45,865 nt of DNA from Candidatus Faecalibacterium faecipullorum (lineage in GTDB: Bacteria; Bacillota; Clostridia; Oscillospirales; Ruminococcaceae): contig DWXX01000044.1 of the NCBI GenBank assembly GCA_019118985.1, forward strand, positions 1 through 45,865, written 5' to 3'. Shown piece after piece: positions 38,491 to 42,843 of the stretch; the stretch's first letter is position 1, and the number at the start of each line of letters is the position of its first letter. The position numbers and the translations under genes were made by a program. Under the pieces are notes generated by a model. That model was not told the DNA's origin. It did not search any database and worked only from the letters and a program-made list of their open reading frames with translations.

Positions 38491-38946
38491 TCAGTCCTTC
38501 TCCATAAAGACATCCACGACGGCCTCGTCGTCGTCCTGGCTGACAAAGATGGTGTAGACGCTGTTGGCGGTCTTGATGTCATGCTCGAAGGCATAGATGT
38601 TCAGCTTCTGGCCGGCCAGGTCGTTGCGGTTCATGGGGCCGACGTAGTGGGCGTACAGGCAGTTGCGCACCCGCAGCAGGGCGTCCATGTGGTACTGGGG
38701 GTCCAGCCGGGTGATCATCTGGTTGGCCTGGCGCATGATGTACATCTGGGGCTCGGGCTTGGGGCCCTTGGTGACCACCACATGCTGGATCAGCGGGCCG
38801 ATGGGCTGGGCGTTGTGGCTGCGGACAAAATTCTCCATCTGGGTGACGATCAGGGGGATATTGCCAAACTCCTCAGGCATGATGCGGCGGCTGAGCACGT
38901 TGGTCAGCTTGAGGGTCTTTGCTTCGCTTACGACAATTTCATTCAT
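38491..38946 (-). CDS. GyrI-like (effector-binding fold) protein of unknown function
   Basis: 151 residues, no membrane segment, no DNA-binding domain. The two-part pattern NVLSRRI..F..I......FV..HNAQPIGPLIQHVVVT and CLYAHYVGPMNRNDLAGQKLNIYAFEHD..YTIFVSQ resembles the duplicated SHS2 unit of GyrI-like/AraC effector-binding domains and DUF5085 proteins of toxin loci; I name this by pattern only. It sits first in the unit with HlyD and the Ig-like gene, 142 bases downstream of a strong terminator. A small-molecule sensor, chaperone or immunity protein would all fit. Confidence 0.5.
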   Translation of the reverse strand: MNEIVVSEAKTLKLTNVLSRRIMPEEFGNIPLIVTQMENFVRSHNAQPIGPLIQHVVVTKGPKPEPQMYIMRQANQMITRLDPQYHMDALLRVRNCLYAHYVGPMNRNDLAGQKLNIYAFEHDIKTANSVYTIFVSQDDDEAVVDVFMEKD

Positions 38947-39232: not shown

Positions 39233-39595
39233 TTAGCCCTCGTACCACTCGACAGAGTAGCCGGCCTTCGCACTGTCAGTGCCCAGGCTGTAGATGGTAG
39301 CAATACCAGCAACTACCTGCATGGCAGTGTTGAAGAAGTCCATATTGGCAACCTTCGCGTTCATGGCAGTGCCGATGTCGCCGAACGCATAGTGGGTGCC
39401 AAAAGTGGTGCCCAGAATGCAGCTGACAAAGCTGCCCAGGAAGGTGTTGCCAATGATCTTGATCAGGTTGGTGCCGAAGGTGCGCCAATTCTCGGAGGTC
39501 ATGACCGGGGGCAGAACGTCCGCGATCACACCGCCGCCAGTGACATAAGTCAGCTCATCCTCTGCCATTACTGCGTAATTTGCAGGAAAGGTCAT
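39233..39595 (-). CDS. Double-glycine-leader secreted peptide precursor (paralogue 1)
   Basis: 120 residues. Leader of 21 residues with ELTYVTGG at positions 14-21, the C39 cleavage signal; predicted core 22-120 of 99 residues, large for an unmodified bacteriocin. The core has MTSENWRTFGTNLIKIIGNT near its start, a hydrophobic Gly/Ala-rich middle, one Cys (in FVSCILG) and the ending IYSLGTDSAKAGYSVEWYEG. It shares the leader, NWRTFGTNLI and IY.LG..AAK-like block with the next precursor. AAAGGTGG precedes the ATG; 42 bases separate it from paralogue 2. G+C content is visibly lower than in flanking housekeeping genes. Function (bacteriocin, signal or toxin) is not shown. Confidence 0.85.
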   Translation of the reverse strand: MTFPANYAVMAEDELTYVTGGGVIADVLPPVMTSENWRTFGTNLIKIIGNTFLGSFVSCILGTTFGTHYAFGDIGTAMNAKVANMDFFNTAMQVVAGIATIYSLGTDSAKAGYSVEWYEG

Positions 39596-39637: not shown

Positions 39638-40015
39638 TTAGTAAGTGGTGCCGTCGATCTTGACAACCTTGTCGTTGTGCAGGGTCTTGGCAGCGTTGAT
39701 GCCCAGGGTGTAGATGGCAGCAGCGGCGCCAACCCAGGACAGAACGGTGTTGCCGATGTCGTTGGGATCCCAGTAAGCCTCTTCCAGCTTAGCGCCCAGA
39801 GCGTCAGCAGAAGCATGGCCGCCGAACAGAACGCCGATGGTGGAGCTCAGCAGGGTGGGGATGGTGGTGTTGCCGATGATGGTGATCAGGTTGGTGCCGA
39901 AGGTGCGCCAGTTAGCGCTGTTCATGACGGCGGGGAAAGCATCCCAAATGTTACCGCCAGTGACGTAGGTCAGTTCGTTCTCAGCAATAGCCGAGTAGTT
40001 TGCAGGCATCATCAT
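39638..40015 (-). CDS. Double-glycine-leader secreted peptide precursor (paralogue 2)
   Basis: 125 residues. Leader with the same ELTYVTGG at 14-21; core 22-125 of 104 residues beginning NIWDAFPAVMNSANWRTFGTNL, then a Gly/Ala-rich hydrophobic middle (GVLFGGHASADALG), AYWDPNDIGNTVLSWVGAAAAIYTLG and a polar end. No Cys, so no disulfide. AAGGGAG is nine bases before ATG 40015. It lies 109 bases downstream of the exporter gene, behind two perfect 14-base palindromes. Two related precursors side by side suggest a two-component product or gene duplication. Confidence 0.86.
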   Translation of the reverse strand: MMMPANYSAIAENELTYVTGGNIWDAFPAVMNSANWRTFGTNLITIIGNTTIPTLLSSTIGVLFGGHASADALGAKLEEAYWDPNDIGNTVLSWVGAAAAIYTLGINAAKTLHNDKVVKIDGTTY

Positions 40016-40066
40016 AATGAATTACTCCCTTCAAATGATTGAAACGAAAATCTTTCGGCCGCCAAA

Positions 40067-40115
40067 CGGTTGCGCAACCGCCTGGTAACCATTTATGTAA
40101 CCGGGTGCGCACCCG
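40067..40115. promoter_or_regulatory. Twin 14-base palindromes ahead of the precursor genes
   Basis: CGGTTGCGCAACCG (40067-40080) and CGGGTGCGCACCCG (40102-40115), centres 35 bases apart, with GGTTAC/GGTTACC copies between them. Both are perfect. They could be a pair of operator sites, or RNA hairpins that protect or limit the precursor message. No convincing promoter is seen between them and the ATG. Confidence 0.5.
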
Positions 40116-40124
40116 ATTGCACCT

Positions 40125-42455
40125 TTAATACGTCATCGAGTCGTCATCGTCCTCTTCATCCGGGGCGGCCGTCTCGACAACGGGCTGTTTGGGCTCTTCC
40201 CGCTTGCGGAAGATGCCCTGCTGCAGGTTCCAGAGGGCGAAGTATTTGCCTTCTTTCGCCATCAGCTCATCGTGGGTACCCTGCTCCACAATGCGGCCCT
40301 CTTCCATGACCAGGATCTGGTCGCAGCCGCGGACGGTGGACAGGCGGTGGGCGACGATCAGCATCGAACGGTCGGCCAGCTGGTTGTAGATCATGTCAAA
40401 AATGGCATTCTCTGTGGCGAAGTCGAGGTTCGAGGTAGATTCGTCCAGAATATAGAGGTTCGAGTCTTTCAAAAAGGCCCGCGCCAGGGCGATGCGCTGC
40501 TTTTCACCGCCGGACAGGCCGTTGCCGGCTTCTTCCAGGTAGGTGTAGTACTGCAGCGGCAGCTTGCGGATAAACTCGTGCGCGTCCGCCTTTTTGGCGG
40601 CTTCCTTGACTTCATCGATCTTCGCGTCGGGGCGGGAGATGCGGATGTTGTCAAAGATGGTCTTGCTGAAAAGCTCGATGTTCTGCGGGACATAGGAGAT
40701 GGCGCGCCGGACCGAATCATTGGAATATTCGTTCAGGTTGACGCCGTTCACCCTGATCTCACCTGACTCCGGCTCGTAATATTTTAGCAGGAGCTTGGTG
40801 ATGGTGGACTTGCCGCTGCCCGAAGAGCCCACCAGCGCCACCTTCTTCCCCGCGGGGATGGTGAAGGAGACGTGGTCCAGCGCCGGGTTGCGGTTGCCGT
40901 ACCGGAAGGTGACGTCGCGGAATTCGATGTCGCCCTCGATCTGCTCAAGCTCGGTGTGCTCGCGCTCGTCGTCCTGCTCGGCTTTGTAGTCCATAATCTC
41001 GGTCAGGCGCTTCATCGAGATGGAAGCCTCCTGGATCTGCAGCTGCAGGTTGACAAGGTTATTCACCGGGCTGGTGAAATAGCTGGAAAGTGTGCTGAAC
41101 GCCATGAAGGAGCCGAGGGTCATATCCCCGTTCAGCACCTGGCTGATGCCTACATAGGTGGTCAGCATCGAGAAGCCGGTGGAGATCAGGCTGGTCAGCA
41201 GCGACTGCGTTGTGGACAGCTTGCTGGACCGGATGCTGATCTTGAGGCTCTTGATATACTCGCGCTCAAGGCGTTCGAGCTCGTTGTCCTCGCCGGCGTT
41301 GCACTTGATGGTCTCGATGCCGCGCAGCCCCTCGATCATCTGGCTGTTGAGGATGGACGCCTGCTGCATGGTCTCTTCGTTGATCTTCTTGTAGGGGCGC
41401 CGGTAGACCAGCACCAGCAGGATGCTGACCAGCGTCATGAACAGCGCGATCGAGAAGAGGGTGGCGTTCATCCTGAACAGGATGATGCCGGTGATGACCG
41501 CCATCGAGATGTCCATGATCAGACTCAGCGCAATGCTTGTGAAGATGGACTTGATGGTGTTGGCGTCGGAGTAGCGGGTGGTGATATCGCCCGTTTTGCG
41601 TGTGGCGAAGAACTTCATGGGCAGCTTGTAGATGTGCCCGAAGTAGCCCAGCATCATGGGGATATCTATCTTAATGGACAGATGGACCAGAATCCACTGC
41701 CGCACGAAGGTGACGAATGCGGAGGTAATGCTGACCACGCTGAATACCAAAATCAGCGTCACCAGCAGGTTCTGCAGCCCGTAGGGCAGCACCTCGTCCA
41801 TCAAGATCTTGTTGAACAGCGAGGACGCGATGCCCAGTATGGTCAGCAGCACCGAGCTGAGGATGGCGTAGGCGAACAGCTTCTTCTGCGGCCAAAGCAG
41901 GTTGACGTACCGCTTGAAGATGCTGCCCTGCTCCACTTTGCCGGGCTGAAAGTCAGCCGTCGGGTTCAAAAGCAGCAGCACGCCGGTAAAGTTCTTGTAG
42001 AATTCGTCCAGGGTCATCCGGCGCAGCTCGGTGCCGGGGTCGCCCACCACGACGTATTCCTTGTCCTTGTATTTCTCACCGGTCTTTTCGGCCTTCTCCT
42101 TGGCTTCGGTCACGCTCAGCATATGCTTGCGGCGCGCGCCTTCGTCCGGGATGGTGGTCTTTTTGAACACCACCACAAAGTGGGTCAGGCCCTGGTCGGT
42201 GATCTCCTGCGCGATGCAGGGCAGGGTAAAGTCGCTTAAAAAGTTTTCGCGGTCCACCCGCACGGCGGCGGTGGTGAACCCCAGTTCGTTTGCGGCCTTC
42301 TGCAGGCCGACGAGGTTTGTGCCCTTCAGGTCGGTGCCCATCATATCACGCAGCCGCGTGATGGTGATTTCCTTTCTGTAATGGAGGCACACCATCGCGA
42401 GACAGGCGGCCGCGCAATCTGTGGTGTCGTGCTGCCGCACATACGTATAGCGCAT
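40125..42455 (-). CDS. C39-peptidase ABC exporter (PCAT) for double-glycine peptides
   Basis: 776 residues: N-terminal C39 peptidase (1-150), six-helix transmembrane domain (about 170-460) and ATPase (about 500-740). Peptidase triad: Cys14 in QHDTTDCAAAC, His92 in LTHFVVV and Asp139 in VVVGDPG. The ATPase shows GSSGSGKST, LSGGEKQRIALARA and LYILDES, all intact. It should cut leaders after GG and export the cores. Odd: His92 and Asp139 are 47 residues apart against about 16 in usual PCATs, because of a charged Lys/Glu-rich insert (about 98-133). The C-terminal tail is acidic (EEDDDDS). ATG 42455 follows AAAGGA by seven bases. Confidence 0.95.
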   Translation of the reverse strand: MRYTYVRQHDTTDCAAACLAMVCLHYRKEITITRLRDMMGTDLKGTNLVGLQKAANELGFTTAAVRVDRENFLSDFTLPCIAQEITDQGLTHFVVVFKKTTIPDEGARRKHMLSVTEAKEKAEKTGEKYKDKEYVVVGDPGTELRRMTLDEFYKNFTGVLLLLNPTADFQPGKVEQGSIFKRYVNLLWPQKKLFAYAILSSVLLTILGIASSLFNKILMDEVLPYGLQNLLVTLILVFSVVSITSAFVTFVRQWILVHLSIKIDIPMMLGYFGHIYKLPMKFFATRKTGDITTRYSDANTIKSIFTSIALSLIMDISMAVITGIILFRMNATLFSIALFMTLVSILLVLVYRRPYKKINEETMQQASILNSQMIEGLRGIETIKCNAGEDNELERLEREYIKSLKISIRSSKLSTTQSLLTSLISTGFSMLTTYVGISQVLNGDMTLGSFMAFSTLSSYFTSPVNNLVNLQLQIQEASISMKRLTEIMDYKAEQDDEREHTELEQIEGDIEFRDVTFRYGNRNPALDHVSFTIPAGKKVALVGSSGSGKSTITKLLLKYYEPESGEIRVNGVNLNEYSNDSVRRAISYVPQNIELFSKTIFDNIRISRPDAKIDEVKEAAKKADAHEFIRKLPLQYYTYLEEAGNGLSGGEKQRIALARAFLKDSNLYILDESTSNLDFATENAIFDMIYNQLADRSMLIVAHRLSTVRGCDQILVMEEGRIVEQGTHDELMAKEGKYFALWNLQQGIFRKREEPKQPVVETAAPDEEDDDDSMTY

Positions 42456-42545
42456 AGATGTTTCCTTTACAAGAGATACACGGGGCGAAGGGCCGCCATC
42501 TCTTTGAGAATGTATGATGATTTTATTCCAATGGACTATGGACAC

Positions 42546-42574
42546 ATTCTATCATATTCCGCTCAAATTCACAA
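42546..42574 (-). promoter_or_regulatory. Promoter for the exporter-precursor unit
   Basis: Minus strand TTGTGA, 17-base spacer, TAGAAT. Leader of about 84 bases to the exporter ATG. Confidence 0.6.
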
Positions 42575-42646: not shown

Positions 42647-42808
42647 AAACAAAAGGGGGTAACCCTGCAGCAGCACGCAGTCCCCTGCTTTGCCCTGCCC
42701 CTGCGGAGAAACAGGACAAAGCAGAGGTCAGCTGCTATCAAAAGAAGGGAGCGCCTACCCTTTGATCAAGGTGCTGCAGCCTTAAAAGCCGTCAAGCTCT
42801 TAAAGCTC
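42647..42808 (-). ncRNA. Candidate structured RNA of unknown class upstream of the exporter
   Basis: On the minus strand a promoter (42815-42843) is followed by a region that folds: closing stem GGCTGCAGCAC (42771-42781) with GTGCTG..CAGG (42664-42676), hairpin ATCAAAGGG..TTTTGAT (42737-42768), and hairpin CTGCTTTGTCCTG / CAGGGCAAAGCAG (42685-42724), whose one non-Watson-Crick pair is G-U only in the minus-strand RNA. The end GGGTTACCC..CCTTTTG can act as a weak terminator and also pairs alternatively with the CAAAGCAGGGG strand. No protein frame is convincing here. I do not recognise a known riboswitch, 6S or SRP core. It may be a stand-alone RNA or a leader. Confidence 0.5.
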
Positions 42809-42814
42809 AAGTGT

Positions 42815-42843
42815 AGTTTACCACAATGCGACAGTTTCTTCAA
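42815..42843 (-). promoter_or_regulatory. Promoter for the candidate structured RNA
   Basis: Minus strand TTGAAG, 17-base spacer, TAAACT. Confidence 0.6.

What the first reader, a model, noticed from the sequence alone, without database searches (positions are those of the whole stretch)
42647..42843. Promoter-led structured RNA of unknown class beside the export locus
A sigma-A-type promoter with exact 17-base spacing is followed by a three-way-junction-like fold, whose largest hairpin is completed by a G-U pair only in the minus-strand RNA, and by an alternative pairing that would make a terminator-like stem ending in CCTTTTG. That is how an sRNA or a switching leader looks. I could not match it to a family.
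Basis: partly seen in the sequence, partly recalled or inferred. Interest (0 to 1): 0.6.

Follow-up and report, generated by a model that had tools for sequence, protein, structure and literature searches.

The report
New RNA beside Faecalibacterium MAM exporter
In front of the gene that exports MAM, the anti-inflammatory protein of the gut bacterium Faecalibacterium, lies an unnamed RNA whose folded shape has been kept through evolution, probably a built-in switch for that export operon.

Summary
The minus strand folds much better than chance (z -4.43; plus strand -1.40), has a conserved promoter, and matches no Rfam family. The window is from Faecalibacterium and the "export locus" is the MAM locus: PCAT exporter plus two MAM genes.

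In 31 genus genomes, mam and PCAT occur in the same 26. All 26 carry an element of this kind between tRNA-Asn and PCAT: 21 intact, 1 decayed, 4 reduced. None of the five genomes lacking mam and PCAT gave a blastn hit. No relative was found in about 790 draws of family and order genomes.

The long hairpin has compensatory changes (10 pairs in the structure; 0 of 500 shuffles). A second hairpin, H1, is almost invariant in sequence.

Best reading: a roughly 160-nt leader or attenuator RNA of the MAM export operon. H1 can trade its partner for a downstream terminator-like segment. In 11 of 26 genomes no second promoter precedes PCAT, so readthrough seems needed. In four genomes the H1 motif builds a real terminator.

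A trans-acting sRNA is the main rival, but pairing with the mam ribosome-binding site is no better than for many genes. Transcription and mechanism are unproven.

The parts
42815..42843 (-). Promoter P1 of the RNA: TTGAAG, 17 bases, TGTGG-TAAACT
   Evidence: -35 segment 99% and -10 segment 94% identity to the majority in 22 relatives; also present in the 4 reduced loci
42650..42808 (-). Inferred RNA, about 160 nt (5' end set 7 nt after the -10; 3' end set at CCTTTTG; both inferred)
   Evidence: Fold z -4.43; homologs in 22 of 31 genus genomes by blastn, own included, none outside the genus; no Rfam match
42778..42807 (-). H0, 5' hairpin, sequence variable
   Evidence: A hairpin at this place in most single-sequence folds although identity is only 63%; covariation not counted
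42737..42766 (-). H1, nearly invariant hairpin AUCAAAGGGUAGGCGCUCCCUUCUUUUGAU
   Evidence: 97% identity over 22 sequences including one decayed copy; 11 of 12 pairs never vary among 14 distinct sequences
42731..42736 (-). 5' side of the stem closing H2, AGCAGC
   Evidence: 4 of 6 pairs invariant, 1 with a change on both sides
42682..42727 (-). H2, long hairpin of about 20 pairs
   Evidence: 9 pairs with compensatory changes
42669..42674 (-). 3' side of the stem closing H2, GCUGCU
42650..42668 (-). Segment D, alternative partner of the H1 5' arm, GCAGGGUUACCCCCUUUUG; terminator-like
   Evidence: window p 0.735; p 0.007 to 0.05 in L011, L013, L015, L016; reduced loci have GGCGCUCC...GGAGCGC + T run
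42546..42574 (-). Second promoter P2 in front of PCAT, TTGTGA-17-TAGAAT
   Evidence: comparable site in 15 of 26 loci
40125..42461 (-). PCAT: peptidase C39-containing ABC exporter
   Evidence: Pfam Peptidase_C39, ABC_membrane, ABC_tran; NCBIfam TIGR01193
40067..40115 (-). Twin-hairpin leader of mam with UGCGCA tips (HP-A 40115-40102, HP-B 40080-40067)
39638..40015 (-). mam gene 1, MMMPAN...GG leader
   Evidence: leader motif as in PMC12184118; 26 of 31 genus genomes
39233..39595 (-). mam-like gene 2, MTFPAN...GG leader

Best explanation
It is a Faecalibacterium-specific structured RNA of about 160 nt, transcribed from its own promoter P1 at the head of the MAM export operon (RNA, PCAT, mam). 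It works as a leader or attenuator. The 5' arm and loop of H1 (AAAGGGUAGGCGCUCC) can pair either with the H1 3' arm, or, across the stable H2 domain, with a downstream segment ending in CCUUUU. The first state lets RNA polymerase run on to PCAT; the second makes a terminator-like stem. SHOWN by sequence: conserved promoter, conserved H1 sequence, covarying H2, fixed position before PCAT, and presence following mam plus PCAT. INFERRED: that it is transcribed, that the two folds switch, which fold is 'on', and what signal H1 binds.
For: Position: between tRNA-Asn and PCAT, same strand, in all loci where it could be placed; RNA end to PCAT start 103-384 nt. Distribution: mam and PCAT in the same 26 of 31 genus genomes; all 26 have a P1 element (21 intact, G029 decayed, G003/G006/G022/G026 reduced); none of the five others gave a blastn hit. 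Structure: 10 pairs changed on both sides and 96.8% of cells paired, 0 of 500 shuffles for each. Cis role: no recognisable second promoter before PCAT in 11 of 26 loci, so PCAT there seems to depend on P1 readthrough. Alternative pairing: combined p about 6e-4 over ten lineages. The four reduced loci keep AGGCGCUCC and use it in a hairpin of about -21 to -24 kcal/mol running into a T run; G029, which lost H1, has H2 followed by TTTTT.
Against: 15 of 26 loci have a P2-like promoter between the RNA and PCAT, which would bypass attenuation. In most lineages the T run after the alternative stem is short and partly paired, and in the window's clade the alternative pairing is no better than shuffles. 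H1 hardly varies, so covariation cannot test it, nor the alternative stem. The test of the alternative pairing was made after seeing the pattern and treats lineages as independent. No transcript, ligand or mutant data.
Confidence: 0.48

Rival explanations
1. A free trans-acting small RNA, ended at the downstream terminator-like segment, that uses H1 to pair with mRNAs (for instance the mam ribosome-binding site) or to bind a protein.
For: Own conserved promoter and 5' hairpin; P2 in 15 of 26 loci makes PCAT independent of it. H1 3' half GCUCCCUUC pairs over 9 bases with the conserved mam site GAAGGGAGU. All 18 genomes with mam next to PCAT have an intact RNA; 5 of the 8 with mam elsewhere have a decayed or reduced one.
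Against: The pairing is not distinctive: mam ranks 10th of 345 gene starts in G025, and roughly a fifth of Shine-Dalgarno-bearing starts in two genomes have 9 or more consecutive pairs with H1. The mam site is kept in genomes that lack H1. The eight unlinked genomes are probably few independent events.
Confidence: 0.3
2. A passive element: a stable stem that sets an RNA processing site or protects the 5' end of the PCAT-mam transcript, with no switching.
For: Very stable 20-pair H2 with compensatory changes; 5' hairpin H0; the operon seems to need unequal output, since MAM is the second most abundant protein (PMC12184118).
Against: Does not explain why the H1 sequence, including its loop, is almost invariant while H0 and H2 drift.
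Confidence: 0.13
3. A DNA-level feature (operator or mobile repeat) rather than an RNA.
For: Near-palindromic sequence beside a tRNA gene; the published mam region is described as much rearranged (PMC8836110).
Against: Single copy in its genome, one full copy per genome, always at this place, compensatory changes, promoter in register.
Confidence: 0.04
4. A known family (6S RNA or another Rfam class) or a small protein gene.
For: Length and long hairpin superficially recall 6S.
Against: No Rfam match even at E 10 except chance microRNA and snoRNA models; 6S found elsewhere in the same genome and in 30 of 31 genus genomes; single-base insertions within the conserved core and no frame open throughout.
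Confidence: 0.02

Closest known systems
Transcription-attenuation leaders of Gram-positive bacteria (T-box, ribosomal-protein and PyrR leaders; own knowledge)
   Same: Promoter, structured leader, mutually exclusive stems, terminator-like end, regulated gene just downstream
   Different: No T-box or other known motif (Rfam negative); signal unknown; second promoter often present; restricted to one genus
Regulatory RNAs of peptide-export or signalling loci such as staphylococcal RNAIII (own knowledge)
   Same: RNA with its own promoter inside a peptide processing/export locus
   Different: No sequence or structural relation shown, same strand as the exporter, no embedded peptide gene; works-like comparison only
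6S RNA (RF00013)
   Same: Similar length, long hairpin
   Different: Real 6S is elsewhere in the genome; no score here
The 3161 candidate structured RNAs predicted from human microbiomes (PMC8040213)
   Same: Same kind of object, from gut metagenomes; this RNA could be among them unnamed
   Different: The main text does not name Faecalibacterium or transporters as context; its supplementary tables could not be opened here
Published mam/PCAT locus (PMC8836110, PMC12184118)
   Same: Same genes and tRNA neighbours
   Different: No intergenic RNA turned up in term searches of either text; only the mam promoter region was analysed

Membership tests
6S RNA (RF00013) | Scores above the Rfam gathering score | tested here: not met
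   No match in the region; true 6S at G000:C36
Any Rfam 15 family | Match at gathering score | tested here: not met
   Only tRNA and RNase P in the window
Structured non-coding RNA | Covariation that keeps base pairs, beyond shuffled and slid controls | tested here: met
   10 pairs, 20 cells, 0 of 500 shuffles
Structured non-coding RNA | A transcript of the expected size | not testable with these tools
   No expression data available
Cis-acting leader/attenuator | Constant position 5' of the same gene on the same strand | tested here: met
   All 26 PCAT loci
Cis-acting leader/attenuator | Transcription from the RNA's promoter must be able to serve the gene | tested here: inconclusive
   No second promoter in 11 loci, a P2-like one in 15
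Cis-acting leader/attenuator | Terminator mutually exclusive with another conserved stem | tested here: inconclusive
   Clear terminator in the 4 reduced loci; alternative pairing significant only in aggregate elsewhere
Trans-acting antisense sRNA for mam | Complementarity to the target better than to other mRNAs | tested here: not met
   Top 3% in one genome by duplex energy, ordinary by run length
Small protein gene | Open frame kept across relatives | tested here: not met
   Frame-shifting indels; no common open frame

The most novel reading that the evidence does not exclude
The RNA is a feedback sensor that ties MAM production to export capacity. H1 would be opened by a product of the same operon (the MAM leader peptide, a PCAT part, or the GCGC-tipped twin hairpins of the mam leader touching the GGCGCU loop of H1), switching PCAT and mam transcription: a new, self-contained class of export-coupled riboregulator in one of the commonest human gut bacteria.
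Probability: 0.13. Interest if true: 0.82.

Novelty: new variant of a known kind. Interest (0 to 1): 0.55.

Why it matters
MAM is described as the second most abundant protein of F. duncaniae and a main candidate for this gut symbiont's anti-inflammatory effect (PMC12184118). The 2022 paper concluded that mam transcriptional regulation is not conserved between strains (PMC8836110). A near-invariant RNA at the head of the operon points to a conserved control layer that was missed because only the mam promoter was examined. It can be tested by re-mapping existing RNA-seq reads.

Tried and rejected
Rfam at gathering and relaxed thresholds: nothing. 6S: present elsewhere. Viral contigs with the H1 pattern: none. 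One Chryseobacterium MAG matched the H1 pattern, but the covariance model finds nothing there: taken as chance. Pairing of H1 with the mam ribosome-binding site looked striking (9 + 4 pairs) but is no better than for many genes, because the H1 3' arm resembles the anti-Shine-Dalgarno sequence: not used as main evidence. Pairing of H1 with the PCAT ribosome-binding site: unremarkable. The outer three-way-junction stem as a general feature: not conserved.

Full report
WHAT WAS CLAIMED. A promoter with 17-base spacing at 42843-42815 on the minus strand, followed by a structured RNA reaching 42647, beside an export locus.

CHECK. The minus strand of 42647-42843 folds to -84.7 kcal/mol against a shuffled mean of -65.7 (z -4.43, 0 of 200), while the plus strand is unremarkable (z -1.40). 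No Rfam family matches, at gathering score or with relaxed filters. The promoter is weak against the E. coli consensus, but its two boxes are invariant or nearly so in 22 relatives.

WHERE IT IS. A nucleotide search found matches in 22 genomes, the window's own included, all in one genus, and 0 in about 120 genomes of other genera. An exact H1-pattern scan of about 85,000 species genomes returned 17 contigs, 16 of them Faecalibacterium; the seventeenth, a Chryseobacterium MAG, has no covariance-model match. A covariance model built from 14 sequences found nothing outside the genus in about 790 draws of family and order genomes (overlapping sets, stricter filters). The neighbouring genes are the MAM locus: PCAT at 40125-42461 (Peptidase_C39, ABC_membrane, ABC_tran) and two genes with the MAM leader motif at 40015-39638 and 39595-39233, as described in PMC8836110 and PMC12184118.

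DISTRIBUTION. mam was found in 26 of 31 genus genomes, PCAT in exactly the same 26. All 26 have the P1 promoter and an element between tRNA-Asn and PCAT: 21 intact, one decayed (G029, H1 lost), four reduced (G003, G006, G022, G026). None of the five genomes lacking mam and PCAT gave a blastn hit. mam lies next to PCAT in 18 genomes, and all 18 have an intact RNA; of 8 with mam elsewhere, only 3 do (Fisher p 0.0009, not corrected for relatedness).

ANATOMY. 5' to 3': H0, a 5' hairpin of variable sequence; H1, AUCAAAGGGUAGGCGCUCCCUUCUUUUGAU, 97% identical across the genus; the stem AGCAGC/GCUGCU; H2, a 20-pair hairpin; segment D. On the alignment, 96.8% of cells pair and 10 pairs have changes on both sides; no shuffle in 500 reaches either, and every slid control is far lower. 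H1 does not vary, so it is a sequence-constrained site rather than a proven helix. The outer three-way-junction stem seen in the window is not general.

ALTERNATIVE PAIRING. The H1 5' arm and loop can pair with segment D, on the far side of H2. In L011 this is 12 consecutive pairs; L012, L013, L015 and L016 have two-part or three-part stems of similar total length. Against dinucleotide shuffles the combined p over ten lineages is about 6e-4, but the window's clade shows no excess. In the four reduced loci AGGCGCUCC is retained and pairs with GGAGCGC just before a T run, an ordinary intrinsic terminator. G029, which lost H1, has H2 running into TTTTT.

SECOND PROMOTER. Fifteen loci, the window among them, have a good promoter (P2) about 80-90 bases (44 in G007) before PCAT. 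Eleven loci have none. In those eleven the simplest way to express PCAT is readthrough from P1, which makes the RNA a leader; in the fifteen it could be a separate small RNA. The best single account is an RNA that partly terminates and partly reads through.

TARGET TEST. The 3' half of H1 is complementary to the mam ribosome-binding site over nine bases. Against predicted gene starts, mam ranks 10th of 345 in G025, and about a fifth of starts with a Shine-Dalgarno motif have runs at least as long. This is a lead only.

A SECOND STRUCTURED LEADER. Between PCAT and mam lie two hairpins with the same self-complementary tip UGCGCA and co-varying stems (11 of 18 predicted pairs changed on both sides in at least one sequence). 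The pattern GTGCGCACNNNNTTACATA occurs in 19 genomes, at mam copies of the PCAT locus and nowhere else except after PCAT in G009, where mam has been deleted. These tips and the H1 loop all contain GCGC; a contact is possible but only four pairs long.

CONCLUSION. A real, unclassified, genus-specific structured RNA at the head of the MAM export operon. Cis attenuation is the best-supported mechanism at about even odds; a trans-acting small RNA is next. Transcription itself has not been shown.

Noticed in passing
40067-40115 (minus strand): Twin hairpins with invariant, self-complementary UGCGCA tips and co-varying stems in the leader of mam; found only at PCAT-linked mam copies (19 genomes, counting a remnant in G009 where mam is deleted).
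   Followed up: yes
42460-42510 (minus strand) and the same place in L074-L082, L085, L096: A further hairpin (AGAGAU...AUCUCUU) just before the PCAT ribosome-binding site in loci that have P2, with apparent compensatory changes in L080 and L085 (read by eye).
   Followed up: no
window 40015-40120; PMC8836110: The published 5' end of mam mRNA, 110 bases before the start codon, would fall near the base of the first twin hairpin in linked loci, so it might be a processed end rather than a transcription start. Not tested in strain A2-165 itself.
   Followed up: no
L016 (reverse strand, about 1770-1960) and L020 (forward strand, about 220-415): A repeated element (GGCTCTCCC...GGGAGAGCTGGCGCG...CGCCTGAGAGGGCAAG...CACCTCTCCC) inserted near the RNA in two species; looks like a small palindromic mobile repeat.
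   Followed up: no
38494-38946 (minus strand): A 151-residue protein between mam and the HlyD-like gene, without any Pfam or NCBIfam match, and apparently conserved after PCAT in G009.
   Followed up: no
G030:C1:1947559-1949888: PCAT reads as two pieces in G030 (one piece with a TGA inside), so the exporter may be broken or mis-sequenced there although RNA and mam persist.
   Followed up: no
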